Source: Girardinichthys multiradiatus (lineage: Eukaryota; Chordata; Actinopteri; Cyprinodontiformes; Goodeidae). Taken from it: DNA of 64,000 nt. Positions 2,714 to 38,066 of the stretch are shown here, one piece after another; positions within the stretch are counted from its first letter, which is position 1, and each line of letters begins with the position of its first letter. The stretch is taken from contig NC_061795.1 of the NCBI RefSeq assembly GCF_021462225.1, positions 47,518,880-47,582,879 on the forward strand, in the 5' to 3' direction. Below the pieces are notes generated by a model that saw nothing but the letters and a program-made list of their open reading frames with translations, was not told the origin of the DNA and did no database searches. Made by a program: the position numbers and the translations under genes.

Positions 2714-18967
<16,254 letters not shown>

Positions 18968-21317: not shown

Positions 21318-21704
21318 TTATATTCTAGGTTCTTCAAAGTAGCCACCTTTTGCTTTGATTACTGCTCCGCACACTCTTGGTATTCTGTTGATGAGCTTCA
21401 ATAGGTAGTCACCTGAAATGGTTTTCCAACAGTCTTGAAGGAGTTCCCAGAGATGCTTAGCACTTGTTGGCCTTTCTGCCTTCACTCTGCGGTCCAGCTC
21501 ACCCCAAACCATCTCGATTGGGTCCAGGTCCGGTGACTGTGGAGGCCAGGTCATCTGGCGCAGCACCCCATCACTCTCCTTCTTGGTCAAATAGCCCTTA
21601 CACAGCCTGGAGGTGTGTTTGGGTTCATTGTCCTGTTGAAAAATAAATGATGGTCCAACTGAACGCAAACCGGATGGAATAGCATGTCGCTGCAAGATGC
21701 TGTG
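21318..21704 (-). CDS. Tc1-like transposase, C-terminal part
   Basis: This is the continuation of the transposase begun at 38,066. It resumes at the residue where the other part stops and runs open to a stop at 21,318. It contains the second catalytic Asp in FQQDNEPKHTS and the catalytic Glu in DPIEMVWGELDR, then the conserved ending KGGYFEEPRI. The spacing between Asp and Glu fits the D34E pattern of Tc1. It now has no start of its own. The two halves are in the same frame once the element and one six-base repeat are discounted. Confidence 0.93.
   Translation of the reverse strand, partial: HSILQRHAIPSGLRSVGPSFIFQQDNEPKHTSRLCKGYLTKKESDGVLRQMTWPPQSPDLDPIEMVWGELDRRVKAERPTSAKHLWELLQDCWKTISGDYLLKLINRIPRVCGAVIKAKGGYFEEPRI
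21699..21704. repeat. target site duplication of the Polinton, left copy
   Basis: GCTGTG here and at 37,404-37,409. Six-base duplications are characteristic of Polintons. Confidence 0.85.
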
Positions 21705-21739
21705 ACACACATCCTTCAATCAAACGAGGTGTGAACATT

Positions 21740-21822
21740 TTGACAGGTGGGCGGGACTTCCGGTGGCTGGGACATCCTAGGGCGGGACTTCCGGTGGCTG
21801 GGGCTTCCTGTGACGTAACCGG
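21740..21822. promoter_or_regulatory. GC-box/ETS/CRE cluster near the Polinton tip
   Basis: Two tandem modules GGGCGGGACTTCCGGTGGCTGG (each a GC box next to an ETS-type ACTTCCGG) are followed by a TGACGTAA CRE-like site near 21,811. The same cluster is mirrored at about 37,285-37,350. Function is inferred from motif content only. Confidence 0.5.
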
Positions 21823-22529
21823 ATATCATCATTAATCGGATGTTGTCATTAGCCGGATATCATCATTAATCGGATGTTGTCATTAGCCGGAAGTTGTCAT
21901 TACAAGGAAGCGAATCTTTCTAATTGTATGTTTTTTAGATGTTTTTTTACATCTAAAAACAAAACATGTAGTTTCTCCACTTTAAAAGGTCACTCAATTT
22001 AATGCAGGCACATCACACGAAATTCTGATAAGAAGAGAGAACCCGACAGATTGTAAATTTATTTTGTTTTAACACAGGGGGTTATTTAGATGCTATTTAG
22101 AAAAGAAGGATGAATTGGCTTCTGTTGTAGAGATGATCTAAAACAGAGAAACCAATGAACTGAAAAAAAAATGTTATGAGTGCTCAGCATCCTGTTTCCA
22201 AATTAGAAATGGATTCTACAGCTAAAAGACTTTGTTTGGAATCATGAGAGACTCCATTTGGTAAAACGGATGATAATTTTACTTACCTTAAGCTTTTCTT
22301 TTTTTTCATCTTAGAGATCTTGATGATTTAGAGAAAACAGTTTTCTCCTCATTCCACGTGGGAGCCAGAGGTTGTAACCAGTATGTCTATGTAAAACGTA
22401 ACAAGAAACTGAAAAAATAAAAAATAAAGGTTATAAAATCCTCAGACATGTCACTGTTTATTGAATTAAAGCAGACAACTTGTGTATTGTCTCAGACAGT
22501 CTTCACACCAACTGTACTCACAAAGTAAT

Positions 22530-22600
22530 TAAGAGGAAAATGGCACTTTCCTGGCTATAAGTCTGGAGCATTGTCTGACAATACACATCCACTGTTTGCG
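22530..22600 (+). promoter_or_regulatory. TATA-type promoter unit of the left block
   Basis: GGCTATAAGTCTGGAGC is followed by the interrupted palindrome ATTGTCTGACAAT, about 200 bases upstream of the ATG at 22,774. The same unit recurs, inverted, three times at the right end (about 35,945-36,000, 36,463-36,510 and 36,570-36,625). Confidence 0.5.
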
Positions 22601-22773
22601 TCTGCTAACTAAGCGCGCTGAAGGTGGAGCAGTCAGTCATCCCTGGTTCTATCGAGAGATACAGCGCAATCTTTACTGGGAGATCGGCTTCAAATCTGGT
22701 AGCTAAAAGTTTATTTTTAACCAGTTACACTGAAATATTTTTAGAACACTTGTAAGGAGAAGCTGAAAAAAAA

Positions 22774-23266
22774 ATGTCGGAAAATATTTCAGGAAACGAA
22801 GAAGGTGAACATTCTGCTTCTATCGAAAGATACAACGCAATCTTCAGTGGTAAGTATTCATCTTTAAGAATTCTTTAAGTGCTTGTGAATGCTCGTTGGA
22901 TAATAATATTGATTAACTTATATTCTTTAGAACCCACGAGTGACGAGCTGGATGGTATCGTTTTTACACAGTCTGACTATGGTAATTATTAACTGCAACA
23001 ACAACATCTAGTTTAGTCAACTGGTGAATGCAATTTTGTGATTTAAAAAATAAATGAGATAAATTCTACTTACAGATTTAACAAGAGAGGTCAGCGTTTG
23101 TAACCGTCTGCCTCCGAAAAAATCAAAGTTGAGACGGAAACTTGTCTTTAAAAAAGACAAGCCGATCCCAGCTAAACATGAAATAGAGGGCGAAGCCATT
23201 CATGCACCACAGTCCCCTGACCGTGCGTCGGAAAAATTAACAGCTCCGGAAGAGGAGAGTAAGTAA

Positions 23267-23302
<36 letters not shown>

Positions 23303-23908
23303 TTCTAAGCATATGTTTTCACAGGTCTATGCGATATTGCAGACTTGTTTTAACCCCTGATAAAATATTTTACAGATATATCGAATGATTTAATCCAGAA
23401 CCCAAGCCTGGATAACATTCAGCAGAACTGTAGCAGTTCAGTGCAGGAAGAGTTGGAACCGCCCGGAACCGTTCAAATACCCCGTAAGTTATAGTTATAT
23501 TCAAATCTTCACAGAAACAAGATTTTTTTTTTTCAAAAGACCTGCATTGTAAGGTAACTTTATTTTGTTTCACAGAATATCTTAAATTGAGGAAAAGACG
23601 GCGACTCTGTGCTCTTTATACCAGGGCAAGGCTTGTTAAAGGTTTATTGAATGGTAAGTTTAATTCTTCTTATACTCATTTACCTACTGAATTAATTCGC
23701 ATATTTCATTGATTTATTTTTTTTCTTTATCTTTCCAGAGGCAACGTTGATGGTGGAGCAGATTTCATCGAGACCTGGACAGCAACAGCGCAGACAGAGA
23801 GTTCCCCTATCCTTACGTGACCGTTGTAATAAAGCATCATGTTTAACGCTTCTGGCAGCATGTCAGACATTGTTAGTGAAACATTGCGCTGATATCAAGG
23901 TAATTTAA
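22774..23908 (+). CDS. six-exon Polinton accessory protein of 221 aa
   Basis: This gene is invisible to simple ORF search. Exons are 22,774-22,849, 22,931-22,981, 23,076-23,258, 23,376-23,483, 23,576-23,653 and 23,739-23,908. Every junction has GT and AG, mostly GTAAGT donors, and all five introns (81-117 bases) are in phase 1, so internal exons are multiples of three. The joined frame has no stop until TAA at 23,906. The product has an acidic N-terminus, basic clusters at residues 57-64 (KKSKLRRK) and 143-149 (KLRKRRR) that could be nuclear signals, and a Cys/Leu-rich C-terminus. I do not recognise it. Exons 1 and 2 lie inside the TIR. It precedes polymerase by only 37 bases. An alternative is that a 58-base intron (23,900-23,957) joins it in frame to the polymerase gene. 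Confidence 0.8.
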
Positions 23909-23945
23909 ACTGATCCCTGGGTCTTCTTCTTCTTCTGATGTTAAT

Positions 23946-26900
23946 ATGGAAAGCCAGATCACACATGCGCTGAATGAGATAAGGAATGTTGTTGCTCATC
24001 TTAATGAAATTCCTGTTAATGCTGATGTGGCAGATAACATCGGGTTAAATGCATCTCCTGCTAACAGTGAAAATGTAATAAATCAAAATCTGTATGGTGA
24101 CTTTTTAAGCTCATTAGAACAGGCTGTTGACGATTTAAATAGAACACCATCTCCATCCAGCATTCAGCAAAATGAATCAGCTGACTTACAAATTCCTTCA
24201 ACGTCACACGCCGCTGATCATACTGGGCAGCATGGCGGCAATTTAAATCCAGAGGTTGCAGTCAACCCTGATCAGATTGAGGGAGATTCTCCTGTGACTG
24301 TTGAACGTGAACGTTTTAATAACATTGAAATAAGGAGACCTTTTACCATCCCGCCTCCCTGCCCTGGTCATGTTCCTGATCTTGCTACAATCTATATAAA
24401 CATCATGCATATTCTCACTGAATTAGCCGATACTGCAAGATCGTTAGCCAGACGTAACGATGTTGTGCAGCTAGAATTAGTCGGGGAAAATCTGAACCGT
24501 AACGTCACGTTTACCGTTAACGATGATGGGAATATGATTCTGCCTGCTTTTGAGAATTTTCTGGATGAGTTAGTACAGTCCAATGCTGAAATGCCTGCAG
24601 ATAATAACCTGGAATTTGTTCTACAGGTAGTTAATGACCCTGCAGGAGGGTCAAAACGTAAGGTTAAAGGAACGTCAGACTGTGAATTGATTAATAAGTC
24701 ACCTGTATATTGTAGATAATACCAGTAATCAGTTATGCTTTGCCATAAGTCTTGCACACGTCTCTGACTCTAACCTTACTGATAATCAGGCTTTAGAGCT
24801 GTGGAGGGAGTGGCAACACAGGGCTGGTTTAGATGATCAGACAGCAGTAACTTTCAGCGACATTGGTAAATTTGAAAACATTCTAAAGAGAAACATTGTA
24901 GTGTTTCACAGAACCGTTACAGACTCTGCAGCTCTGTGTAAATTTGAGACCAGTTTCCCTGATCGATCAAACCCTCTCTTTCTGCTGTTATTTCAAGGTC
25001 ACTACTATGGGATAAAAAATCTCAAGGGTTTTATAGGATCGAGATACATCTGTGCATATTGTTACGGGAGCTATGAAAAGCCAGACACACACCATTGTGA
25101 AGGCTATTGCCCGGTGTGTCACTCATACCAGTGTATGCGTGAAATTAACGAACCTGTCGCCTGTGCAGGTTGTCACAGAATCTGTCGTAACTCTTCTTGT
25201 TTCAGTAGACACAGGGAACCTCGCAAAAGACCTAGTGCTGACAGGCCTATGAGTGACTGTGAGTTGGTAAAACTGTGCAAGGTGTGCAAAAGGATATACG
25301 TTATTCCAATCAGCAAGCAGGATAAACCACACGTGTGTAATGTAAAATGCCGTATTTGTGGTGAGAATATACCTCCTGATTTAGATGTGACGTGCGATGG
25401 TCATCTGTGTTACATTCAAACCGCCCAAGCCTGTAATCAGTTAGATGATAAACTGGTTTTTTATGATTTTGAATGCTTCATCGACGAGAACGGTGTGCAC
25501 ATCCCCTATCTGGTCTGTGTTAAAACGCTGAAAGGTGAGGAATGGCATGCTTATGGATTGAATTGCACCCAAACATTTCTTCTCCATTTCAGGAGACCGA
25601 TGTACAGAGGCTTTACCTTAATAGCTCATAACGCACGTGGGTATGATAGCTACCTGATTCTCACAGCTATGCTGCAGTTAGGCATTAAACCTCATCTCAT
25701 CATGCAGGGAAGTAAAGTTCTCTGTTTAACCGACCCTGATTACAGGTTAAAATACATTGATAGTCTGTCCTTCATGTGTATGAAGCTTAGTGCGATGCCG
25801 AAAGCATTAGGTTTTAGTGATAAGACCAAAGGTTTTTTCCCCCACCTATTCTCGTCTGAGCAACATCTCCAGTATGTGGGGTCTTTTCCTCCTCCATCCT
25901 GCTACGCTGTAGAACGCATGAGCCTTCAAGAACAACAGGTGTTTAGCAGCTGGTACAGAGAAGCGAGCAAAGGGGTCTTTGACTTTGAGAAGGAAGCTCT
26001 TCGTTATTGTAAAAATGATGTGGACATTCTTTATCAAGGTTGTGTTAAATTCAGGGATGAGTTCTTTAAGGAGACAAGTGTGGATCCGCTTAAATGCATC
26101 ACGATAGCCTCAGCCTGCATGAAGGTTTTTGTAACCAATTTCCTTCCTCCTAAAACTTTGGCCATCCCCTCACCTCTGGACTACAGGCGTAGTAGTAAGA
26201 CGTTTTCCAGCACGTCCATTCAATGGCTTGGCTGGATTTCAGACAGCAGAAAAATTGACATCGAACATGCATTAAACATGGGGGAAAAGAAAATTGGTCC
26301 ATATTCTGTGGATGGGTATGCAGAGATTAACGCTGTCAAAGTTGCGTTTGAATTTTACGGCTGTTTTTTCCATGGCTGTGAAAAGTGTTACATGCCTCAT
26401 GACAAATGTCCGTTGAGAGGGGTCGCATTTGAACAGTTTTACGCAGCCACTGTTGAGAGAAGCAAGGTGCTCCAAACTGTGTACGGTCTTCGTCTCGAGG
26501 TTATCTGGGAGCATGAGTGGACTGAAATGAAAAAATCAGACCCAGGGGTGATCAGCTTTCTTGAGAAAGTTAATGCACTCGAACCGCTATCACCCCGAGA
26601 TGCTCTGTATGGTGGACGCACCTGCCCTATGAGGTTGAGGTACACAGCGGGGGCAGGTGAAACTGTACACTATGTGGATTACACATCTCTGTACCCCTAT
26701 GTAAATGCTAGCTGCGTCTTTCCCCTCGGGCACCCCACCATCATTTACAAAGATTTTGATGACCCCAGCAGCTACTTTGGCCTCATCAGAGCTGTGGTCT
26801 ACCCCCCACGAGGGCTCTTTTTCCCTGTTTTGCCTTACAGAACATCCCAAGGTAAACTGGTGTTTACTCTCTGCCGCACATGTGCTGAAATAAATAACCA

Positions 26901-27933
26901 GTCAGGTCCCTGCAGGCATAATGATGAGGACAGAGCTCTGACAGGTGTGTGGGTGAGTGTAGAGTTTTGTAAAGCGTTACAGTGTGGTTATAGCCTAGCT
27001 AAAATCACTGAAGTTTGGCATTTTGAGAAGACCAGCGACACAATCTTTAAAGGTTACATTCACTGCTTTTTAAAGGGTAAGCAGGAGGCTTCAGGCTACC
27101 CATCTGAAGCGGTGGATGAGGAGAGCAGGTCGAAGTATGTCGCAGACTACAAACTTCATCAGGGCATCCAATTAGACCCTGAGAAAATCGAGGTGAACCC
27201 TGCCAAAAGACAGGTAGCGAAACTGTGCTTAAACAGCTTTTGGGGAAAGTTTGTGCAGCGAAGTGATCTGTCTCAGACCACAGTCATCACTAACCCTGAT
27301 GAGTTTTTCAGCTTCATGTTCTCGAGTAAATACAGGGTTAACTACTTCCATTTCTTCAACCCTGAAATGTGTGTAGTGCAGTGGGACTACAGCAAACTTG
27401 TCATCTCTCCCCCAAGCAAGGTAAACAATGTCTTTATTGCAGCATTCACCACCGCTTATGCGCGTTTAAAACTTCCCAGCAGCATGGAGCAATTGCAGGA
27501 CAGATTGATTTATATTGACACAGACAGTTTGATTTATGTGACAAAAAGTGGTGAAACTCCTCTGGAGTTGGGGAATTATCTGGGTGATCTTACTGACGAG
27601 CTCGCAGGAGACAGCATTTTGGAGTTTGCATCAACAGGACCCAAGAGTTATGCATATCAAACCAAAAACCAGAAAAAGCTAGTGATACGTGCTAATGGTA
27701 TCACTCAGACGCATGAATGCAGCGAGAGGGTCAATTTGGACAGCATCAAAGGGCTGGTCCAGGGCTACTTACAGGGGTCAACTGAGGGTGTCATTGAAAT
27801 CCCTCAGCACATGATCAGGAGGGATAAAAAGAGATTCCTCTTAAGAAATGCTGCATTTGTTAAAAGGTTTCGGTTGGTGTATGACAAGAGATGCCTTTTT
27901 TCTGACGGGACAACTCTGCCTTTCGGTTATTAG
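23946..27933 (+). pseudogene. polB: protein-primed family B DNA polymerase, one frameshift
   Basis: This is the Polinton replicase, expected to copy the linear element from a terminal protein primer. An N-terminal region of about 250 residues runs from ATG 23,946 in one frame. The rest continues one base out of phase from about 24,705-24,712 to TAG at 27,933, giving roughly 1,330 codons in all. In the second part, counted from 24,901, the exonuclease motifs are DFECF (aa 189), AHNARGYDSY (aa 242) and YCKNDVDIL (about aa 370). The polymerase motifs are DYTSLYPYVN (aa 593), KLCLNSFWGKF (aa 774) and YIDTDSL (aa 871). Cys/His zinc-like clusters occupy aa 45-150. The C-terminal TLPFGY is typical of Polintons. 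All catalytic motifs are intact; the only lesion seen is the frameshift. The apparent start at 24,901 is a GTG inside the open frame and not a real start. Confidence 0.93.
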
Positions 27934-27968
27934 AGCATAAGAAGAAGAAGAAGAAAGATAAAATAAAA

Positions 27969-28640
27969 ATGTTGCAATCTGCCAATTTACAGGAGGTTGA
28001 TTTTGATCCTAGATTTAGAGCACCTTTCTCATGTATAATAATAGGACCCAGTGGTTGTGGAAAAACCTTTTTTGTAAAAAGTGTTTTGCAGAACTGTAAC
28101 CATGTCATGGATGTTGTTCCAGAAAATATTGTGTGGATTTACACTTCTTTTCAATCCATGTATGCTGAATTGCAGAAGATGAATAAAAATATAAAATTTG
28201 TGGAAGGATTGCCTCATTCTTTTGAAGATGAAAACCTGTTTCCTCCTGATCAGAATCATCTGATTATTCTAGACGATGTTATCGCTCAAGCCTCAGATGA
28301 TGAAAACGTGATGAAGGTCTTTACCCAGTTTCGTCACCATCGTAATATGAGTGTTATGATGTTGACTCAGAATGTTTTTCATCAGGGAAAGTTCAGTCGC
28401 ACTATTAGTTTGAACTGTAATTATATGGTGTTGTTTAAAAACCCGAGAGATAAGCTGCAGCTGAATATACTGGCCCGTCAAATGTTTCCATCTCAAAAGG
28501 GTCTCTTCTTGGAGAGTTTTGAAGATGCGACGAGAGAAACTCATGGATATTTAATCATCGATTTTACGCCTACCTGCCCAGAACATTTCAGATTGAGAAT
28601 GTGCCCAGAACAAAGTAAGTCATCATGTCTGCACGTATAA
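27969..28640 (+). CDS. A32/FtsK-HerA type DNA-packaging ATPase
   Basis: The 223-residue protein has Walker A GPSGCGKT at about residues 27-34, Walker B LIILDDV near residue 100, and a TQN sensor-like motif at about residue 133. It matches the genome-packaging ATPases of Polintons, adenovirus-like and giant viruses, which pump DNA into capsids. The ATG at 27,969 lies 35 bases after the polymerase stop, behind a purine-rich GAAGAAGAA stretch, and its 3' end overlaps the start of the next ORF. No stop, frameshift or missing motif is visible, so the gene looks intact. Confidence 0.92.
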   Translation: MLQSANLQEVDFDPRFRAPFSCIIIGPSGCGKTFFVKSVLQNCNHVMDVVPENIVWIYTSFQSMYAELQKMNKNIKFVEGLPHSFEDENLFPPDQNHLIILDDVIAQASDDENVMKVFTQFRHHRNMSVMMLTQNVFHQGKFSRTISLNCNYMVLFKNPRDKLQLNILARQMFPSQKGLFLESFEDATRETHGYLIIDFTPTCPEHFRLRMCPEQSKSSCLHV

Positions 28641-29026
28641 AAAGGAATGTACCATTATTCAGAGCATTGTACCAGGCTACCCCGCAGAAGCGCAAAAATA
28701 TTCTTGCACACTGCTCTCCCGACTTTCTTCAGGCTCTGTGCGAGATTGCTCTGAATATCCTAAAAGGTAACATTAAACTATCACCCTCTCAACACCGACA
28801 ATTGAAGAAACAAAGAAATATCATCAGATTGTTGGGTGATAAGAAAAACGGAATAAAAACTAAACAGCTGGCTCTCAAAAGGCAACGAGGTGGTTTTATT
28901 CTCCCCATCTTAACGGCTCTTGCTCCCTTGATAGGTGATCTAGTGGGTGGTATAATCAGGAGAAAATGTCTCTCAGAACATCGCAGAAGATGTTTCTCAT
29001 TTCCCCTCATCAATTCAAGCGTCTGA
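28625..29026 (+). CDS. conserved small basic protein with hydrophobic C-terminal segment
   Basis: This 133-residue ORF begins at ATG 28,625, overlapping the end of the ATPase gene. The first two thirds are rich in Lys and Arg (KRNVPLFRAL, LKKQRNIIRLL, LALKRQRGG). A hydrophobic stretch then follows, GGFILPILTALAPLIGDLVG, at about residues 94-113. Short basic proteins with such a tail recur in Polinton/adintovirus gene sets and have been compared with adenovirus core or membrane-active minor proteins. The role here is inference. It overlaps the next ORF by about 60 bases in another frame, so the last 20 residues may be poorly constrained. Confidence 0.75.
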   Translation: MSARIKRNVPLFRALYQATPQKRKNILAHCSPDFLQALCEIALNILKGNIKLSPSQHRQLKKQRNIIRLLGDKKNGIKTKQLALKRQRGGFILPILTALAPLIGDLVGGIIRRKCLSEHRRRCFSFPLINSSV

Positions 29027-29316
29027 CCCAGTCAGACACGTCCATCAGACAGACGGCGGAGGAGAATTTGGATGCTGAAATGAGAGCGATAATAAATGAG
29101 CCCGGTTTGACTTCTTATGAAAAAATCAAGAAATATGATGCACTTTTCCAGAGGTATCTGACTCTACTCAAGCAAGGTGTGAAAGAAGAACAGCGGGTAA
29201 GTTTAACGCTGCAGCGTGACACAGAGGTTCCTGAACATGAGCGGTCCCAAGAAAAACAAGGCCCAGGGCAGGACGAGGCCCCTAAGGATCAGGTTGTTAC
29301 GGATAAACCGTTATAA
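28966..29316 (+). CDS. conserved small Polinton protein, function unknown
   Basis: A 116-residue ORF from ATG 28,966 to TAA 29,316 is the last gene of the rightward block. The first 80 residues look helical and charged (LISPHQFKRLTQSD, SYEKIKKYDALFQRYLTLLK). The last 35 are Glu/Lys/Pro-rich and probably disordered. Similar short proteins (N-terminal VLISPHQF-like motif followed by a helical EKIKKY region) are common next to the ATPase in animal Polintons. No activity is known to me. The bidirectional poly(A) signal lies 34 bases after the stop. Confidence 0.7.
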   Translation: MSLRTSQKMFLISPHQFKRLTQSDTSIRQTAEENLDAEMRAIINEPGLTSYEKIKKYDALFQRYLTLLKQGVKEEQRVSLTLQRDTEVPEHERSQEKQGPGQDEAPKDQVVTDKPL

Positions 29317-29342
29317 GAAAATGAAACATGTAGCCTATTTCT

Positions 29343-29355
29343 TTTATTCAATAAA
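29343..29355. terminator. bidirectional poly(A) signal at the convergence point
   Basis: TTTATTCAATAAA gives AATAAA on the plus strand (29,350-29,355) and, read on the minus strand, AATAAA at 29,348-29,343. It separates the rightward and leftward gene blocks. Confidence 0.7.
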
Positions 29356-29477
29356 ATATGTATTGATTATATTTTTAAGTCTAGCTTCATTCTCTACTTC
29401 ACACACTAACATATGATGTCATTACACAAATATTATATCATAAGAAAAAACAAACAATGGAAAAAAAAAAAGACAAT

Positions 29478-30020
29478 TTAAATTCCATAACAATCCAGAA
29501 ACATCTCCAAAGAGCATGTTCCGTGAGTATAAAATGTACAACTTTGATTAATGACACATTTCTGATATTTTTTCACAAAGTTAGATACCATTAAATCATT
29601 CTTAATCACATCTCCGGTGTATTTCGACAACACTTGCTGCATTGATAATCCGCACGCTCTATGACATAGATAAAAAATGCAATGGTGACCGCACACAGTG
29701 GACAGAGTGTTTTGAAGCTGATTATTATGATACAATATTTTTGAGGATCTGTCTTCTAAAAATGTTACGATGCTTGACGGGTAGAACTCGAAATCCGGAG
29801 AGAATCCATAAGAGTCAAAAAAGCTGGATTGACCATTCTCATCCAAAGTCAGAGCTAGCCAGTGTTCTCCAGGCATGTGTGAAGGATGTGTGTTCACAAT
29901 AAAGTAGGCCGGCCCTGGGAATTTGTCAGCTAGCAGCGGGAGCTGGTCGCACGGCCACACACCGCAAAACAAATCTCCCAGCAGATGATGCAGTATGTTC
30001 TCAATTTCATGATTATTCAT
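29478..30020 (-). CDS. adenain-like cysteine protease
   Basis: The 180-residue protein resembles the adenovirus maturation protease, which trims capsid precursor proteins inside the particle. Visible features are the N-terminal FCGVWPCDQLP block, the catalytic His in EHWLALTLD (about residue 53), the acidic residue of the SSFFDSYG block, and an NTLSTVCGHHCIFYL segment with the catalytic Cys at about residue 110-114. The frame is open from ATG 30,020 to the stop at 29,478, and no catalytic residue is missing. It starts 11 bases after the major capsid stop. This is the last gene of the leftward block, ending about 130 bases before the shared poly(A) signal. Confidence 0.92.
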   Translation of the reverse strand: MNNHEIENILHHLLGDLFCGVWPCDQLPLLADKFPGPAYFIVNTHPSHMPGEHWLALTLDENGQSSFFDSYGFSPDFEFYPSSIVTFLEDRSSKILYHNNQLQNTLSTVCGHHCIFYLCHRACGLSMQQVLSKYTGDVIKNDLMVSNFVKKYQKCVINQSCTFYTHGTCSLEMFLDCYGI

Positions 30021-30031
30021 GTCTGACTAGA

Positions 30032-31334
30032 TTAATAATAATCCACCAGCACACGCCTCTTTGAATCAATCTCTAAAATAGAGTCATAACAAGCGTAGAT
30101 GATCAGCGTGGTGGTATGAGGCAACGGGTTTCTGAAACGCATTTCCAGTCTTAAATTCCCACTGGAAACTGGAGATAGAGCATCTGTGTCCTCACCCGGG
30201 TTAAGATTAAATGTGAATAGAGAGTATCCTTGATTAAATTCCTGACGTGTTATACTCAGCGGAAGATCTTTTAGATGTCGTCCTGTAGCTGTAAACAAGT
30301 TGTAATACTCTCTCACTGAATGACCTTGGTTAAAATTTGGCTGGAAGGCCTGGAATTTGTCTGCCATCCTTACACAAAGCTAAATATTCCATATCAAAAT
30401 GATTAAAGTCAAACGGATTGAGATTGCGTGTTCCTGTAAAAGCGTCATGATCCAGTAACGCAATCACCACATACTTGGGAAAGATGCCTAAGAAAAGATT
30501 CTCTTGGTTGCATACCCTTGAATTTTCAGGGATGGACTATGTTTTTACATTCACACGTGAAAGTGGATACAGAGCATTTGCTTTCATTAAAGCTGTAGTG
30601 TGACCCAGTCGTACAGCTGGAGAGACAGTAACTTTTTTGATAAAAAGAGATGCTCCTAATATCCTGAGTTTGAAAGTAGAGTCTCTTGCGGCCATGAGAC
30701 AAAAGGCATCGTTGGCTCTTGTAAGTTTAATTTTGAGGTCAACAGAGTTTAAAAGAAGTCTTTCACAGAAAAATATGTCTGCATGCAGGGGGCCTAGGAG
30801 ATGTACCTCCCTGGAATTTTCCGTAAAGCCTGCTCTGCTGTTAAGACCTTGGTTAGGGCCGTTAGTTGTAACAATAGAGTTCAGAGCCCCTACAGTGTCT
30901 TTATAAAAAAGACCAGAGCTAAACTGACTTTTTAAAGAATCCTCAGAAAAGTTTAACAATGTCTCAATCATGGCTCTGTATGGATGTGTAGCGCTGGATT
31001 GTGAAATCAATCGATCTCCGAGAGTGACGTCACACTGACTGAAGATGGTGTTTAACGAGTAGTTGATGAGCCCTACAGGTGCATCATCCGGCAGGTTTGT
31101 TCCATCCTCGTTGGTAATTTTCACTCTGAGATGCAACAGCGTATCGTTGAGATCTAGATACTTTTCTCCGTCTCCCGGAATGAAAAACTCGATCGGGCCT
31201 CCATCGGTGATTGCTGATAAAGGCTGGATCTCGGTGTAAATTTTATCTTCAATCGATAGCTGCGTCATCGGGGCAGAAAATAAGTCCAACTCTGCCAGCG
31301 TGCACTCTGATTATTTGTTATGTAAAAGAGCCAT
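30032..31334 (-). pseudogene. major capsid protein (double jelly roll), three lesions
   Basis: This is the Polinton hexon-like major capsid gene, recognisable by ELDLFSAPMTQLSIED near the N-terminus, LFSQCDVTLGDRLIS, and a C-terminus ending in RRVLVDYY. The ATG at 31,334 overlaps the stop of the upstream pVI-like gene. Three independent breaks are visible: an in-frame TAA at codon 8 (31,311-31,313), an in-frame TAG at 30,537-30,539, and a frameshift between about 30,333 and 30,365. Between breaks the frame is open and the total length of about 434 codons fits the family. The gene cannot make a full capsid protein. I leave the pieces separate and give no repaired reading. Confidence 0.93.
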
Positions 31335-31778
31335 TATTTAAATATATCAAAACATGCGGATGACTTCCTTCCTCTTCGTTTGTCAGCTCCAACTGATCTC
31401 CTTTTTCGCGTTTGTCGTTGTTTTTTAACTGTCCTTAAACGATCACCAGGGGGTCTTGTTCTGGGTCTTTTGGATAAAATCATAATTCCTGAACCTTCTT
31501 GACCTTCGGTGTGTGTAGAACCACTCATTTTACTCACGGCTCTACCGATGACATCCGAAGCGATATTTGATGCAGCCGTTTTAAGATGGGGTTTTGCAAT
31601 AGCAAATCCTTTTCTTAACCAGAGGGGATACGAAGCGAAATAATTTTGAAAATAATGATCCAATTCCGCGTCCGTACATGACCGGGGCCCCATAAAACCC
31701 TGGCAGATTACCGCCTGATTGACTTACATAGTAATTTACAAAGCGATTTGGATCACGTCTCAGACTTAGCTGTGCCAT
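31334..31778 (-). pseudogene. pVI-like minor virion protein, one frameshift
   Basis: Read from ATG 31,778, the first 56 codons or so carry a Tyr/Gly-rich segment (NLPGFYGAPVMYGRGIG) and an amphipathic LFSKLFRFVSPLVKK stretch. The frame then breaks around 31,608-31,616, in a run of A residues on the coding strand. The remainder, in a neighbouring frame, shows GFAIAKPHLKTAASNIASDV and a very basic end (KKQRQTRKRR). An amphipathic Gly-rich N-terminal half and basic tail recur in the Polinton/adintovirus protein compared with adenovirus pVI, which helps membrane penetration. The comparison is by architecture only. Confidence 0.7.
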
Positions 31779-31890
31779 GTTCTCTCTTGCCTGCTTGATG
31801 CAGTGTTGAAGGACCAGGGTAATATGAATGATAATCAATCAGTCTTAGAGGTTATATACATATCTCTGGAATAGTTTATACAAATAAAAT

Positions 31891-32664
31891 TTATCTCAGG
31901 CTACGTTGTGATATCACCGGTTTGAAGTGTAGTCTTACGATGGTCTTACCATAGACGAAATTTACAGGAACATTTTGGTCCGATTTAATTTCTATATGGA
32001 TATTTTCAATATGTCTTCTGGAAACTGGAAGGTAGTGGGCGGGGTTAAACGTCAGAGTAACCATATCACTGAAGTCGCCTTGTACTTTGACGGTCCGCAG
32101 TAAAGGCGCAAAAGTGTCGCCTACTATTTGCGGGCTGACCACGTCGCTGTAACAGTATAGGTGATAGAAACCAGCCTTTATATCTGCCGGAAAAGGAGCC
32201 AGTTTTGGTTCAGATACATGAATCCATTCCCCTGGTTTCACGCCCATCAAATAAGCCAGAGTGTTGAAGAAGCGTATTTCATACGGACCGCTTGCTTGAA
32301 ATGCAAATCTCTTTTGAACTTTGCTGAATTTAATGCGGACACCCGAGTTCATTTTTTTGAAAAACATTTCCATCTCTGTCTCGAGTTGAATAGCGCTGTT
32401 ATAGTAGCCACTTCTGATCCTTTGCGTATTGATCTCCACATCGCCAACCTTCCTCCATTCAAAGTAGGCATCATAATCCGGTAAATTATGCCATGTATGA
32501 GGGTATGAAATCTCTACTAATGCAACCATCCATTGGCCTTCTAAATCAATATGTTGAGCTAAATTTACACGGAAACTCGAACTGGTATTATTTTTAAACA
32601 CTTCCATGCTAGCATTAGAGGGAAGGGTAATGTAAAAACCGTCATCCTCTGCCTTGCGTTCCAT
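31891..32664 (-). CDS. minor capsid (penton-like) protein
   Basis: The 257-residue ORF matches the Polinton minor capsid protein, a single-jelly-roll protein thought to occupy the fivefold vertices. Landmarks are FYITLPSNASMEVFKNNTSS at residues 10-29, QWMVALVEISYPHTWHN at residues 44-60, and a C-terminal IVRLHFKP strand. Length and start (ATG 32,664) agree with the family and the frame is unbroken. It lies between the integrase and the pVI-like gene, 39 bases from the integrase stop, in the usual Polinton order. The capsid set is therefore mixed: penton open, hexon broken. Confidence 0.88.
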   Translation of the reverse strand: MERKAEDDGFYITLPSNASMEVFKNNTSSSFRVNLAQHIDLEGQWMVALVEISYPHTWHNLPDYDAYFEWRKVGDVEINTQRIRSGYYNSAIQLETEMEMFFKKMNSGVRIKFSKVQKRFAFQASGPYEIRFFNTLAYLMGVKPGEWIHVSEPKLAPFPADIKAGFYHLYCYSDVVSPQIVGDTFAPLLRTVKVQGDFSDMVTLTFNPAHYLPVSRRHIENIHIEIKSDQNVPVNFVYGKTIVRLHFKPVISQRSLR

Positions 32665-32703
32665 GATGCTGTATGAATCATTAGGTTTTAGTACACACCT
32701 ATT

Positions 32704-33774
32704 TTATACGTTTCGTAGTTCATCAAACTTGATCCAACTGTTGAATTTCTCAGGCCAATTTTTCCAGCGTACAAAAACCTGTTTGACACCCTTGACGGTG
32801 CGTTGATTTAATATTTTCTCCACTTGATACATCTTGTCCTTAAATATTTTTACTTTTTGAAGTTCCTCAGCGTAAAAAGATCCCTCAATTGGTTTTCCAT
32901 CCAAATCTTTGAGTTTGTATACAGGAGGAGATCGGGGTATCCGCTCATACACTGTAAACACTTCATCCGTAAAACTCTGTTTGTATTTTTTGTCAAACAC
33001 TCCACGTACCTTGGATATTCTGACAAGATCCCCCTGTTTAAACATTGTCACTGAGTCCCTGCAATATCTGTTGGAGGTAACATCGTACAGATTCTGAAAC
33101 ACTTGAAAGGCATTTTCTGAGGTCACTTCCATTGGGCTCATCTTAATGCTGGTGTGGTAGCTGTGGTTGTAGCTTCTAGTTAAATTTTGCAGGACGTCAA
33201 TGTACCGCCGGGTGTTGTTAGCAGTAAAATATCTCCACATCCTTGTTTTTAACGTACGGTTAAACCTCTCAACCACATAGGCTTTTGCTTCACTTGCTGT
33301 GGCAAAATGTTCAATACCGTGTTTCTCCATTAGAAGCTTAAATTTCTTGTTAAAAAATTCTTTCCCTGCATCAGTCTGAAATTTTTTTGGGACCTGGCTT
33401 TCTTTAAAAACTGATTCAAAAGCCTTTAGCACCTCTGCAGCAGTTTTCCTCTTCAAAACACGTACATACGCCCTCTTTGAAAAGATGTCAATGACTGTTA
33501 ATAAATAATTGTAACCGTCATTTTCCTTAGCCAGAGCTTGCATGTCACAGAGATCGGCTTGGAACTGTCTCAATGGTCTGGTGACAAAAACTCTGTTTCT
33601 CGGGAACTTTATTCTTGCAGGTTTATGTAGAGTATAGGTATCTTCTCCCGATAAAAAATCTTTAACTTTTTCAACCGCTACCTTCTTCCCCGTTTCATCT
33701 TGTATAACCCTCCTCAACCTTTCTAAACCCCCTAAACTTCCAGGATTTGATGGGTTGTAATATACATTTTTCAT
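32704..33774 (-). CDS. retroviral-type integrase with C-terminal chromodomain
   Basis: The 356-residue enzyme inserts the element into target DNA and makes the six-base duplication. The DDE core is visible: Asp in FQADLCDMQA (about residue 79), Asp in FQTDAGKEFF (about residue 134), and Glu in YVVERFNRTLK about 35 residues later. An SH3-like C-terminal region is followed by a chromodomain (YQVEKILNQRTVKGVKQVF, then VRWKNWPEKFNSWI) at about residues 303-345. ATG 33,774 is preferred over a GTG eight codons upstream. The frame is intact. The chromodomain could bias insertion toward methylated histone sites. The insertion seen here lies in another transposon, which would fit heterochromatin targeting but does not prove it. 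Confidence 0.95.
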   Translation of the reverse strand: MKNVYYNPSNPGSLGGLERLRRVIQDETGKKVAVEKVKDFLSGEDTYTLHKPARIKFPRNRVFVTRPLRQFQADLCDMQALAKENDGYNYLLTVIDIFSKRAYVRVLKRKTAAEVLKAFESVFKESQVPKKFQTDAGKEFFNKKFKLLMEKHGIEHFATASEAKAYVVERFNRTLKTRMWRYFTANNTRRYIDVLQNLTRSYNHSYHTSIKMSPMEVTSENAFQVFQNLYDVTSNRYCRDSVTMFKQGDLVRISKVRGVFDKKYKQSFTDEVFTVYERIPRSPPVYKLKDLDGKPIEGSFYAEELQKVKIFKDKMYQVEKILNQRTVKGVKQVFVRWKNWPEKFNSWIKFDELRNV

Positions 33775-33914
33775 GATCCTTCTTTCAGACAAAAACACAT
33801 TCAGATAATAAAGATCAATTCAAACATTGCAATCTTTAAAAAAAAACAAAAAACTGTTATATATGTATACCAGTAGAAAGCTGAGAGAGAATACAGAAAA
33901 TACAAAACAAGTCA

Positions 33915-34754
33915 TCAATCATCTGAGATCGGATCGTAGCACTCTGAGACAGAGTTAAGCTGCTTGAGACAATCATTACCGCTCATCTTATCGTACATAT
34001 CAGTGATTGCACTATGGAAGCCTTGTACCGATTTCAGTTCATATAAAACCGTCTCAGCAATCGTTTTCACTCTGAAGTCATCTTCTTGTATGCGTCGAAG
34101 TGTCAGAAGTTTCCGAATAGCAGGAAGGAGCTTGGGGTTTACGAGTCGTCGCACGATGCGTTGAAAGTTGACTTGGTAATACTCCTCCTCCAATATCTCC
34201 AGGCACTGATGCTGTCGTTGGCTCGGGTGGTTCGTTATGCACCCTTAACAGGTTTCTTTGACATAGTTCAAACAGGTTATGTTGAATAAATGAAGTATTG
34301 CTGTTTTCACCGTATTGATGAGAGCGCTTGAGATCCAGCCGTCAATTTCATCACCCTGATTACTCTCCTCCTCCTCTGGTGAAGGCTGAGGGGCAGGTAT
34401 CGGGTCTGGAGTTGGTGGGGAGGGTGAGTAGCTGATGGTTGCCTTGTCCTCCACGATCACCCTCTTGTCTTCAGGTTGGATATCTGTGTGTACAGACTCA
34501 GCCACGCATAGTGGTGAATAGAGGCCGGGTGAAGGCGGATGATACGATCTGAGGTTGTATCCTGTCGGTGTCCCTGAACTGAATAGGGACTCAAAGAGCT
34601 GCGACGATGAGGCGACTGGTGAGTAGAGGTCTGGAGAAGGTGGATGATATGGCCCGGTGTTGAAGCTTTTATCATCATGATTAGGAGAGAAGACGGTCTC
34701 TTCTTGCTGGCTGTAGAGGTCCCAGTATGGTGTTTTCCCGTACGCTCCATACAT
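33915..34754 (-). pseudogene. unrecognised proline-rich accessory protein with an internal stop
   Basis: From ATG 34,754 the frame encodes 168 residues rich in Pro, Ser and Tyr, with the motif YHPPSPDLYSP/YHPPSPGLYSP twice (about residues 36-46 and 68-78). An acidic tract (SPEEEESNQGDEIDG) follows, then a hydrophobic end. TAA stands at 34,245-34,247. The same frame stays open for 110 further codons to 33,915, giving a helical, charged segment (LEEEYYQVNFQRIVRRLVNP, LLPAIRKLLTLRR) with no ATG of its own. The simplest reading is one gene with a nonsense mutation. Alternatives are a true stop plus a spliced second product. It sits just upstream of the integrase, where Polintons carry lineage-specific genes. 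I do not recognise a domain. Confidence 0.55.
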
Positions 34755-34819
34755 TCTCAAGGTCTGCCGCCCGCCGTTATGAAGAAGAAGAGTCTGTGAG
34801 CTCGCAGTTAGACCCTAAT

Positions 34820-34884
34820 ATATAGCGCAGGAAGGTGGGAGGGTCCTCAAGAAGGGGAGTGGGTCCTCAAAAGAGGGTGGGTCC
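34820..34884. repeat. short tandem repeat between accessory genes
   Basis: A unit containing GGGTCCTCAA followed by G/A-rich sequence is repeated about four times. It separates the two right-end accessory loci. Confidence 0.6.
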
Positions 34885-35776
34885 TCAAAAGAGGGTGGGC
34901 TTTAGATCCACAACAGGGAACGTCAGGATTCTTTTCACTGACATAACATCAATCCAGCAGCGTGAGTTTTCGAAAAGGTTGGAAAGACGCTGTCCAATTT
35001 CATTCATCTTCTCAACCCAAGCATCATACGGTAGAGCCAGCACAGTCTTGAATACACCGCAGTTCTGATTGAATGCCTCCAACACAAACAGATCTGAGGG
35101 GGTCGTCTGGTTATTCTTGCGTTTGCTTGCCTGAAAAGACCAGCGGCCATTTGCTGTGGTTTTTGACCCCCACACTGCACTAAAGAGAGGTTCTCTCGCA
35201 GCTATTTTGACATCAGAAGGACACATTCTCATCCTTTTTGCTGGTCGAGGAGAGCTTTCATCTTCATCCTCCCTTTCGTACACTGAGACTGATTCAGGGT
35301 TATCGTTAAGGTGTGGGATTGCCAGCCGTAACACAGCCCAGTCGTTGTGGGTGAGAGTACACAGAGCCAATGATCCATTAAATACCTCGTCTTGATCCAA
35401 TTGATACAGGCAGAGCTCTCCTATTTCGTACATATGGTTCCAAAGACCACTCTTCCTGCAGAGTGTCGAACGGAGGCCTTTGTACCTTGCATAGGTGATA
35501 TGTTGATTTCTTCGGGGCATCCATTTCACGGCGCGTATGCCTGTAGACGGTTACTGGGGTTTCACACAGAAGAGATGTACGTCTTAGCTGACCTGAGGCC
35601 TGTTTTTCATCCATTGTTGTTGGTGAAGTTGAATCATCATCTGCAGAGTATGTTACGATAGGAATTCCGATGGGTATCTCAGACGAGGAAATAGATGATG
35701 TAGATGGTTGTTCATCATCTTGGCACATCTTGCTTTTCTCCCCGGTTTGATGAAAAACTCTCTTAACTCTAACCAT
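34885..35776 (-). pseudogene. unrecognised right-end accessory locus, two overlapping frames
   Basis: ATG 35,776 opens a 132-codon frame with a Ser-rich, probably disordered N-terminal half. A second frame, with ATG at 35,520, overlaps it by about 150 bases and runs to 34,885. This second part looks like a folded domain: TYARYKGLRSTLCRKSGLW, MYEIGELCLYQLDQDE, ALCTLTHNDWAVLRLAIPHL, an acidic linker with the basic AKRMR, and a C-terminal FKTVLALPYDAWVEKM region. The overlap with no good intron suggests one gene of about 290 codons broken by a frameshift near 35,500-35,530, but two genes or splicing from the adjacent TIR exons cannot be excluded. It is the first gene of the leftward block. I do not recognise the family. 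Confidence 0.5.
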
Positions 35777-36001
35777 TGTTCAACAAGCGTTCTTTTCCAG
35801 CGAATGCTGCAGGTAAATTGTTGCGTTTTCCGCTAGTATTTAAAACAAACAATGAAGAACGCCCCTCTGTTTTTTAATTTGTTGATTCTAGATTCGCCTC
35901 CTAATGACAAAATCCGCAGACGCGTTAATTCATTAAACAGTGGATGTGTATTGTCAGACAATGCTCCAGACTTATAGCCAGGAAAGTGCCATTTTCCTCT
36001 C
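35777..36001 (-). promoter_or_regulatory. promoter-like region of the leftward block
   Basis: Immediately inside the right TIR lies a third copy of the GGCTATAAGTCTGGAGC/ATTGTCTGACAAT unit (about 35,945-36,000), and a TTAAATA box lies near 35,840 on the minus strand, upstream of ATG 35,776. Role inferred from position and motif. Confidence 0.45.
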
Positions 36002-37403
36002 AAAATAGCATTCACCAGTTGACTAAACTAGATGTTGTTGTTGCAGTTAATAATTACCATAGTCAGACTGTGTAAAAACGATACCATCCAGCTCATCACT
36101 CGTGGGTTCTAAAGAATATAAGTTAATCAATATTATTATCCAACGAGCATTCACAAGCACTTAAAGAATTCTTAAAGATGAATACTTACTACTGAAGATT
36201 GCGTTGTATCTTTCGATAGAAGCAGAATGTTCACCTTCTTCGTTTCCTGAAATATTTTCCGACATTTTTTTTTCAGCTTCTCCTTACAAGTGTTCTAAAA
36301 ATATTTCAGTGTAACTGGTTAAAAATAAACTTTTAGCTACCAGATTTGAAGCCGATCTCCCAGTAAAGATTGCGCTGTATCTCTCGATAGAACCAGGGAT
36401 GACTGACTGCTCCACCTTCAGCGCGCTTAGTTACGCCCCTTGGCCATACCCCCATTGTCAGACAATGCTCCAGACTTATAGCCAGGAAAGTGCCATTTTC
36501 CTCTTAATTACTTTGTGAGTACAGTTGGTGTGAAGACTCTGAGACAATGCACACCTGTGGATGTGTATTGTCAGACAATGCTCCAGACTTATAGCCATGA
36601 AAGTGCCATTTTCCTCTTGATTACTTTTGACTACAGTTGGTGTGAAGACTGTCTGAGACAATACACAAGTTGTCTGCTTTAATTCAATAAACAGTGACAT
36701 GTCTGAGGATTTTATAACCTTTATTTTTTATTTTGTCAGTTTCTTGTTACGTTTTACATAGACATACTGGTTACAACCTCTGGCTCCCACGTGGAATGAG
36801 GAGAAAACTGTTTTCTCTAAATCATCAAGATCTCTAAGATGAAAAAAAAGAAAAGCTTAAGGTAAGTAAAATTATCATCCATTTTACCAAATGGAGTCTC
36901 TCATGATTCCAAACAAAGTCTTTTAGCTGTAGAATCCATTTCTAATTTGGAAACAGGATGCTGAGCACTCATAACATTTTTTTTTTCACTTCATTGGTTT
37001 CTCTGTTTTAGATCATCTTTACAACAGAAGCCAATTCATCCTTCTTTTCTAAATAGCATCTAAATAACCCCCTGTGTTAAAACAAAATGAATTTACAATC
37101 TGTCAGGTTCTCTCTTCTTATCAGAATTTCGTGTGATGTGCCTGCATTAAATTGAGTGACCTTTTAAAGTGGAGAAACTACATGTTTTGTTTTTAGATGT
37201 AAAAAACATCTAAAAAACAAACAATTAGAAAGATTCGCTTCCTTGTAATGACAACATCCGATTAATGATGATATCCGGTTACGTCACAGGAAGCCCCAGC
37301 CACCGGAAGTCCCGCCCTAGGATGTCCCAGCCACCGGAAGTCCCGCCCACCTGTCAAAATTTTCACACCTCGTTTGATTGAAGGATGTCCTTTATGTGTG
37401 TGT
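36002..37403. repeat. Polinton terminal inverted repeat, right
   Basis: Inverted partner of 21,705-23,037. It is somewhat longer because a promoter-like unit of about 60-100 bases is duplicated between 36,455 and 36,660. It contains a mirror copy of exons 1 and 2 of the six-exon gene (36,190-36,265 and 36,058-36,108) pointing leftwards. Confidence 0.93.
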
Positions 37404-37409
37404 GCTGTG
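37404..37409. repeat. target site duplication of the Polinton, right copy
   Basis: GCTGTG directly after the right terminus, matching 21,699-21,704. Confidence 0.85.
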
Positions 37410-38066
37410 GTAGCCATGCTGGTTCAGTATGCCTTCAATTTTGAATAAATCCCCAACAGTGTCACCAGCAAAGCACCCCCACACTATCACACCTCCTCCT
37501 CCATGCTTCACGGTGGGAACCAGGCATGTAGAGTCCATCCGTTCACCTCTTCTGCGTCGCACAAAGACACGGTGGTTGGAACCAAAGATCTCAAACTTGG
37601 ACTCATCAGACCACAGCACAGATTTCCACTGGTCTAATGTCCATTCCTTGTGTTCTTTAGCCCAAACAAGTCTCTTCTGCTTGTTGCCTGTCCTCAGCAG
37701 TGGTTTCCTAGCAGCTATTTTACCATGAAGGCCTGATTCACACAGTCTCCTCTTAACAGTTGTTCTAGAGATGTGTCTGCTGCTAGAACTCTGTGTGGCA
37801 TTGACCTGTTCTCTAATCTGAGCTGCTGTTAACCTGCGATTTCTGAGGCTGATGACTCGGATGAACTTATCGTCCGCAGCAGAGGTGACTCTTGGTCTTC
37901 CTTTCCTGGGGCGGTCCTCATGTGAGCCAGTTTCTTTGTAGCGCTTGATGGTTTTTGCGACTGCACTTGGGGACACTTTCAAAGTTTCGCCAATTGACTG
38001 ACCTTCATTACTTAAAGTAATGATGGCCACTCGTTTTTCTTTACTTAGCTGCTTTTTTCTTGCCAT
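37404..38066 (-). CDS. Tc1-like transposase, N-terminal part interrupted by the Polinton
   Basis: The frame from ATG at 38,066 encodes about 220 residues of a Tc1/mariner transposase, which cuts and rejoins the element at TA sites. It shows a paired-type helix-turn-helix DNA-binding region (KKQLSKEKRVAIITLSNEGQ, VSPSAVAKTIKRYKETGS), the GRPR linker and the first catalytic Asp in WSDESKFEIFG. It then continues to VIVWGCF. The frame is open up to the Polinton junction and only four foreign codons follow before a stop. The rest of the protein is at 21,318-21,704. No other lesion is visible, so this Tc1 copy may have been intact when the Polinton landed. Confidence 0.93.

What the first reader, a model, noticed from the sequence alone, without database searches (positions are those of the whole stretch)
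22774..23908. Hidden six-exon Polinton gene with all introns in phase 1
Six exons with strong GT/AG sites, five short introns all in phase 1, and total coding length exactly divisible by three are hard to get by chance. Simple ORF calling misses the gene entirely. It encodes a 221-residue protein with two nuclear-signal-like basic clusters and no family I recognise. A multiply spliced gene placed ahead of the replicase suggests nuclear expression and host-type splicing control.
Basis: partly seen in the sequence, partly recalled or inferred. Interest (0 to 1): 0.85.

Follow-up and report, generated by a model that had tools for sequence, protein, structure and literature searches.

The report
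Spliced gene in fish virus-like transposon
A virus-like jumping element in a fish genome carries a small gene split into six pieces that begins inside the element's repeated end; gene models from related fishes encode the same protein, yet such elements were reported to lack introns, and what the protein does is still a guess.

Summary
Six exons give 666 nt / 221 aa, with five GT-AG introns (81-117 nt), all phase 1. A simple splice-chain search returns exactly this chain as its optimum; 0 of 500 shuffles reach it (constraints were set after seeing the chain). All ten protein hits come from goodeid fishes; their alignment blocks end near the proposed exon edges, and the most divergent full-length one is 40% identical. 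Expression is untested.

Beyond the finding: the gene sits in a 15.7-kb Maverick/Polinton (21705-37403; 6-bp duplication GCTGTG). Its presumed promoter and exons 1-2 lie inside the ~1.3-1.4-kb terminal inverted repeat, so both ends carry them. Its stop is 37 nt before the polymerase's start codon. The product has an acidic TIR-encoded N-terminus, a basic stretch and a very basic, predicted two-helix C-terminus; no Pfam or PDB relative was found.

Best reading: a fast-evolving nuclear accessory gene, probably an early regulator. A published vertebrate survey reports no introns in intact Mavericks (PMC8097293, passages), but its gene models covered the core genes.

The parts
21705..37403 (.). 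Maverick/Polinton element, 15,699 bp, flanked by 6-bp duplication GCTGTG (21699-21704 and 37404-37409), termini ACACACA
   Evidence: end-motif class and size range in PMC8097293 section 7
21705..23041 (+). left terminal inverted repeat (approximate inner end)
   Evidence: (95.9-99.3% identical blocks)
35998..37403 (-). right terminal inverted repeat, with second copy of exons 1-2
22556..22561 (+). TATAAG in a repeat whose other copies lie at 36593, 36480 and 35976 on the minus strand; presumed promoter
   Evidence: promoter role is inferred
22774..22849 (+). exon 1, ATG start
22931..22981 (+). exon 2 (exons 1-2 encode an acidic segment; inside the TIR)
23076..23258 (+). exon 3 (basic cluster KKSKLRRKLVFKKDK)
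23376..23483 (+). exon 4
23576..23653 (+). exon 5 (start of basic helical C-terminal part)
23739..23908 (+). exon 6, stop TAA 23906-23908
36190..36265 (-). right-TIR copy of exon 1
   Evidence: 2 differences in 127 nt of exons 1+2
36058..36108 (-). right-TIR copy of exon 2; exons 1-2 read on into the cut-off intron 2 give a 45-residue acidic peptide ending DYGNY
23946..24719 (+). N-terminal part of the polymerase gene; start codon 37 nt after the six-exon gene's stop
24691..27933 (+). main open frame of the protein-primed DNA polymerase (PF03175); out of frame with 23946-24719 in this copy
34885..35776 (-). right-end accessory gene, two overlapping frames with a possible 52-nt phase-1 intron (35541-35592)

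Best explanation
A genuine six-exon accessory gene of a vertebrate Maverick/Polinton. It is transcribed inward from a promoter in the left terminal inverted repeat, with exons 1-2 in that repeat, spliced by the host in the nucleus, and ends just before the polymerase gene. The 221-aa product has an acidic N-terminus (net charge about -10, TIR-encoded), a linker with a basic stretch, and a strongly basic C-terminal part (about +14) predicted as two helices. The likeliest role is an early nuclear regulator that binds DNA or chromatin through the basic helices and contacts the transcription or cell-cycle machinery through the acidic and linker parts; in position and expression logic it resembles the terminal spliced early genes of adenoviruses, without sequence kinship. 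Shown: exon chain, frame, relatives with matching exon edges, location in the TIR, synteny with the polymerase gene in this copy. Inferred: transcription, splicing, nuclear location, regulatory role. My odds: real spliced gene 0.92; nuclear regulator 0.4.
For: Exact chain and frame; optimum of the chain search, 0 of 500 shuffles; exon/intron GC contrast 44% against 25%; ten goodeid proteins, E 2.7e-76 to 4.5e-8 (family of all five species checked); tblastn blocks ending at exon edges: exon 2 at 22980 in 6 of the 8 proteins that reach it, exon 5 as 23575-23652 in 5 of the 6 that reach it, exon 6 from 23738 in 3 of the 4 that reach it; P0009, 40% identical over the whole length, keeps 48 of 82 aligned residues in exons 5-6 and 23 of 42 in exons 1-2, against 18 of 65 in exons 3-4; TIR, target duplication and core genes; charge partition; two helices in both models.
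Against: No transcript evidence. The goodeid proteins are themselves gene predictions and several are partial or probably wrong (P0003-P0007 partial or cut, P0008 joined to unrelated sequence, P0010 TIR sequence only), so agreement between them is not fully independent. Three of ten (P0003, P0004, P0006) use a different 5' exon that skips the proposed ATG. Acceptor 3 is weak (1.2 bits). Structure models are poor (mean pLDDT 48 and 58, pTM 0.23 and 0.28). No LxCxE or CtBP motif and no family match, so the regulatory role rests on position and charge alone.
Confidence: 0.55

Rival explanations
1. A host gene captured by the element: a multi-exon gene of fish origin was copied, introns included, into the terminal accessory region.
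For: Short spliceosomal introns and 1-1 symmetric internal exons (51, 183, 108, 78 nt) look like a host gene; PMC8097293 (passages; section 7) places diverse proteins in the accessory regions of Mavericks.
Against: All ten hits among about 5.8 billion proteins are goodeid proteins with no annotated host family; no Pfam or PDB relative. The search needs shared 5-residue words, so a distant host parent could be missed.
Confidence: 0.2
2. The six exons are a 5' extension of the polymerase gene: splicing from the donor-like AAG|GTAATT at 23899/23900 joins them to the polymerase frame.
For: The donor-like site overlaps the stop region; an acceptor-like AG at 23956-23957 would keep frame (read by eye); the Xenoophorus model P0007 leaves exon 6 at exactly this point and ends ECEL, letters also found in the polymerase of Xiphophorus (P0011).
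Against: 25 of the 31 polymerase relatives carry sequence like 23946-24719 in one protein with the polymerase; P0014 and P0018 start at the matching place; P0001 and P0009 read past the donor and keep the ending DIKVI; none of the 31 carries the 221-aa sequence beyond one weak hit (P0016, E 0.017).
Confidence: 0.08
3. Chance: an ORF-like chain assembled from AT-rich introns and unrelated open stretches.
For: Chains of five introns can be found in 4 of 40 stretches outside the element; splice matrices were recalled and constraints chosen afterwards.
Against: 0 of 500 shuffles and 0 of 40 outside stretches reach the score; protein relatives down to 40% identity with matching exon edges.
Confidence: 0.03
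4. A once-functional gene, now silent in this copy: the element is inserted in a Tc1-like transposon and its polymerase frame is broken, so no product is made today from this locus.
For: Polymerase halves 23946-24719 and 24691-27933 are in different frames although relatives are continuous there. Compatible with the best explanation for the gene family.
Against: The six-exon frame itself is intact, and TIRs are still 95.9-99.3% identical in their main blocks.
Confidence: 0.5

Closest known systems
Vertebrate Mavericks / Polintons ('alphaproteoviruses', adintoviruses), PMC8097293 and PMC11071296
   Same: TIRs, 6-bp duplication, end motif (AC)3A//T(GT)3, PF03175 polymerase, A32-like ATPase, C5-type protease, rve+chromodomain integrase; two facing modules; accessory regions at the ends
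   Different: [quoted passage not shown] here the left accessory gene has five, and its first two exons lie inside the TIR
Adenovirus terminal early transcription units (E1A at the left end, E4 at the right end; recalled)
   Same: position next to the inverted terminal repeat, spliced, read inward, ahead of or opposite the replication genes; presumed nuclear regulator
   Different: no sequence match in Pfam, no LxCxE motif; exons inside the repeat itself
Polinton-like viruses with group I introns (PMC12220804, passages)
   Same: introns reported in a relative of Polintons
   Different: those are self-splicing group I introns of 309-376 bp in protist elements; here 81-117-nt GT-AG introns

Membership tests
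Vertebrate Maverick/Polinton (the element) | terminal inverted repeats within the published 46-1,447 bp range | tested here: met
   about 1,337 and 1,406 bp; range
Vertebrate Maverick/Polinton (the element) | 6-bp target site duplication | tested here: met
   GCTGTG on both sides
Vertebrate Maverick/Polinton (the element) | conserved end motif | tested here: met
   ACACACA at both ends, the (AC)3A//T(GT)3 type
Vertebrate Maverick/Polinton (the element) | polymerase, ATPase, protease, integrase | tested here: met
   PF03175 E 6.1e-41; PF04665 E 6.3e-9; PF00770 E 7.4e-6; PF00665 E 1.9e-12 with PF00385
Vertebrate Maverick/Polinton (the element) | major and minor capsid genes | tested here: inconclusive
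   ORFs lie at 30537-31289 and 31891-32664 but match no Pfam family at E up to 1; assignment would be by position and recall
[quoted passage not shown]
   for the left accessory gene only; this copy is also not intact, since its polymerase frame is broken. A reported observation, not a defining rule; does not remove the element from the group
Adenovirus E1A/E4 proteins | sequence kinship | tested here: not met
   Pfam scans at E up to 1 and 10: no adenovirus family
Adenovirus E1A/E4 proteins | LxCxE retinoblastoma-binding motif (E1A; recalled) | tested here: not met
   absent in the 221-aa protein and in P0009
Basic helix-loop-helix factors (considered from the two-helix C-terminus) | Pfam HLH match | tested here: not met
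   no HLH family
Spliced host-type gene | junction reads | not testable with these tools
   no RNA-seq on hand

The most novel reading that the evidence does not exclude
The inverted repeat carries a shared 'regulatory start cassette' (promoter plus the two exons of an acidic segment). The left end splices it to a basic helical, probably DNA-binding, part to make a full regulator; the right end, where intron 2 is cut off, can give only the short acidic part (45 residues). One cassette would thus make an activator from one end and a competing short form from the other, and copying between the repeats keeps the two matched. All four internal exons are multiples of three with phase-1 edges, so any can be skipped without loss of frame, which would add further forms.
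Probability: 0.15. Interest if true: 0.75.

Novelty: new variant of a known kind. Interest (0 to 1): 0.5.

Why it matters
Vertebrate Mavericks are thought to be integrated relatives of adenovirus-like viruses, but nothing is known of how they regulate their genes. A spliced gene that starts in the terminal repeat implies nuclear transcription by the host and gives five defined junctions that any goodeid RNA-seq set can test. It also warns that ORF-based or core-gene surveys, which reported intronless elements, can miss spliced accessory genes at the ends.

Tried and rejected
Polymerase extension. I first thought the six exons were the N-terminus of the polymerase, because donor- and acceptor-like sites of 58 nt spacing seemed to link the frames (notes). 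Polymerase relatives are continuous across the region and have their own start, so I dropped it as main reading.

Introner origin. The five introns are no more alike than shuffled ones: 85 of 200 shuffles match the best pair score and 138 of 200 the summed score.

Cyclin-docking motif. RRKLVF in exon 3 looks like an RxL motif (recalled). A strict form occurs in 2.6% of shuffles of the 221-aa protein and 4.5% of P0009 shuffles, a loose one in 72% and 56%. P0003 and P0005 have RQKLVF and do not match the pattern used, and RRSLF of P0009 is placed near it by one alignment but not by another. Left as a weak lead.

Fold search. Not run: both models are of low confidence. One PDB hit at E 0.93, ribosomal protein L36, is taken as chance, as is the single Pfam hit PF25621 at E 0.097.

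Other copies of the DNA. Three scans of viral contigs found no relative. The genome search on the window's own assembly was unanswered in all 12 tries, so copies in the same genome were not examined. Contigs behind the goodeid proteins could not be fetched. A bacterial-type promoter/terminator scan is irrelevant to a fish gene and is not used. AATAAA occurs at 23828 inside exon 6 and at 24077 in the polymerase gene; since the motif is common here, the 3' end of the transcript is unresolved.

Papers. Kapitonov and Jurka 2006 and Starrett 2021 were not held; what I say of the first comes from PMC8097293. Eight literature searches listed no paper whose title or abstract start describes a spliced gene in a vertebrate Maverick; most of the listed papers were not opened.

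Full report
OBSERVATION. The chain at 22774-23908 is as described: 666 nt, 221 aa, five GT-AG introns of 81, 94, 117, 92 and 85 nt, each in phase 1. Donor scores are 4.6-9.4 bits and acceptor scores 1.2-10.0 bits with recalled matrices, so 'strong' is true of most sites but not of acceptor 3. Exons are 44% GC, introns 25%, and every retained intron would end the frame within 2-19 residues. A chain search over the left end returns exactly this chain as the optimum; 0 of 500 dinucleotide shuffles and 0 of 40 stretches outside the element reach its score.

RELATIVES. One search of about 5.8 billion proteins gave ten hits at E up to 10, all in fact at 4.5e-8 or better, from Ameca, Characodon, Goodea, Ilyodon and Xenoophorus, all Goodeidae. 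They are annotation-pipeline models, several partial. Against the window their tblastn blocks follow the exons: exon 2 ends at 22980 in 6 of 8 proteins that reach it (P0001 and P0010 run on to 22989), exon 3 alone is matched as 23075-23257 by P0006, exon 5 is 23575-23652 in 5 of 6 (P0007 starts 9 nt earlier), exon 6 starts at 23738 in 3 of 4 (P0009 at 23729). Four of ten start at the same ATG (P0001, P0002, P0008, P0009); three (P0003, P0004, P0006) use an upstream exon ending near 22703 spliced to about 22789. P0009 is 40% identical over the full length; it keeps 23 of 42 aligned residues in exons 1-2, 18 of 65 in exons 3-4 and 48 of 82 in exons 5-6. Relatives carry a short in-frame segment (VFLNVGE-like) that the window lacks. 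A 40% identical protein that keeps the same exon joins is the strongest argument for a coding gene.

THE ELEMENT. The gene lies in a Maverick/Polinton of 15,699 bp (21705-37403) with the 6-bp duplication GCTGTG and ACACACA ends, one of the three end types of PMC8097293 (section 7). Core genes: polymerase PF03175, A32-like ATPase, C5-type protease, integrase with chromodomain. It is inserted in a Tc1-like element, whose halves flank it. The TIRs are about 1.34 and 1.41 kb, 95.9-99.3% identical in the main blocks.

EXONS IN THE REPEAT. Exons 1-2, and the region upstream with a TATAAG at 22556, are inside the left TIR; the right TIR holds the same at 36265-36190 and 36108-36058. In the 127 nt of exons 1-2 the two ends differ at two places: one changes E to K (most goodeid relatives have K there), one is silent. 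On the right, intron 2 is cut off at the end of the repeat, so exons 1-2 read into intron 2 give a 45-residue acidic peptide. The TATAAG-bearing repeat occurs four times: once left, three times right, the innermost (35976) about 200 nt ahead of the right-end gene at 35776. That these are promoters is inferred.

POLYMERASE NEIGHBOUR. The stop TAA at 23906-23908 lies 37 nt before ATG 23946. The ORF 23946-24719 is the polymerase N-terminus: 25 of the 31 polymerase relatives found contain sequence like it in the same protein, and goodeid models P0042-P0045 align from its first residue. In this copy that ORF and the main polymerase ORF (open from 24691) are out of frame, where relatives are continuous, so this copy's polymerase gene is broken there. 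The six-exon gene is thus separate from the polymerase; the Xenoophorus model P0007, which leaves exon 6 at a donor-like site and ends ECEL, is the one hint otherwise and also hints that the same neighbour is present there.

PROTEIN. Residues 1-43 are acidic (charge about -10), 44-139 near neutral with a basic cluster (9 K/R in 15 residues from residue 57), 140-221 strongly basic (about +14). AlphaFold2 on goodeid relatives gives low-confidence models (mean pLDDT 48 and 58) that agree on two helices in the C-terminal part and no structure before it. No Pfam family, no PDB relative; no LxCxE or CtBP motif.

MECHANISM. Steps shown: gene structure, relatives, place in the TIR, order with the polymerase. 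Steps inferred: host RNA polymerase II reads inward from the TIR, the host spliceosome removes five introns, the basic protein enters the nucleus and acts on DNA or chromatin early in the element's cycle. I put the spliced gene at 0.92 and the regulator role at 0.4. The four internal exons are 51, 183, 108 and 78 nt, all multiples of three, so any may be skipped in frame; five of five phase-1 introns would be rare by chance (about 0.002 if phase 1 is 30% of introns, a recalled figure).

KNOWN AND NEW. [quoted passage not shown] PMC11071296 (passages) describes adintovirus gene content and a class of short-motif 'Oncoid' genes. I found no description of a spliced TIR-borne gene in eight literature searches, judged from listings and from passages of three papers; most full texts were not read, so this is weak evidence of absence.

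VERDICT. Observation confirmed; interpretation partly supported; a new variant of a known kind of element, with a protein family that in this search is confined to goodeid fishes. Function is open.

Noticed in passing
34885-35776 (minus strand): Right-end accessory gene in two overlapping frames; a 52-nt GT-AG intron (35541-35592) would join them in phase 1, and the Ilyodon model P0006 leaves the first exon at about the same place (aligned to 35594). A frameshift is the alternative.
   Followed up: partly
P0006 (Ilyodon) against 35776-35594, 22656-22703 and 23075-23257: One predicted protein runs from the right-end gene into the TIR exons and exon 3 of the left gene, an order not possible in this window's layout; assembly chimera or a variant element.
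   Followed up: partly
21318-21719 and 37392-38066 (minus strand): Two halves of a Tc1-like transposase that the Maverick insertion separates.
   Followed up: partly
35976, 36480, 36593 (minus) and 22556 (plus): A repeat of about 60 nt with TATAAG, three times at the right end and once at the left; perhaps promoter copies.
   Followed up: partly
22649-22684 and 22818-22854: The end of exon 1 (coding SIERYNAIF) has a similar copy about 170 nt upstream, in the 5' leader; three goodeid models use that upstream stretch as an exon.
   Followed up: partly
24691-24719: The polymerase gene is out of frame between 23946-24719 and the main ORF, although relatives are continuous there.
   Followed up: partly
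30537-31289 (minus strand): ORF in the capsid region with no Pfam match; by recall like the start of a major capsid protein, and it seems to end early.
   Followed up: no
47002-48976: Large near-perfect palindrome, arms about 0.9 kb with a short centre (inverted repeats I3, I6, I7, I9, I10).
   Followed up: no
7142-9739 and 14930-15526: ORFs that look by eye like LINE endonuclease/reverse transcriptase pieces.
   Followed up: no
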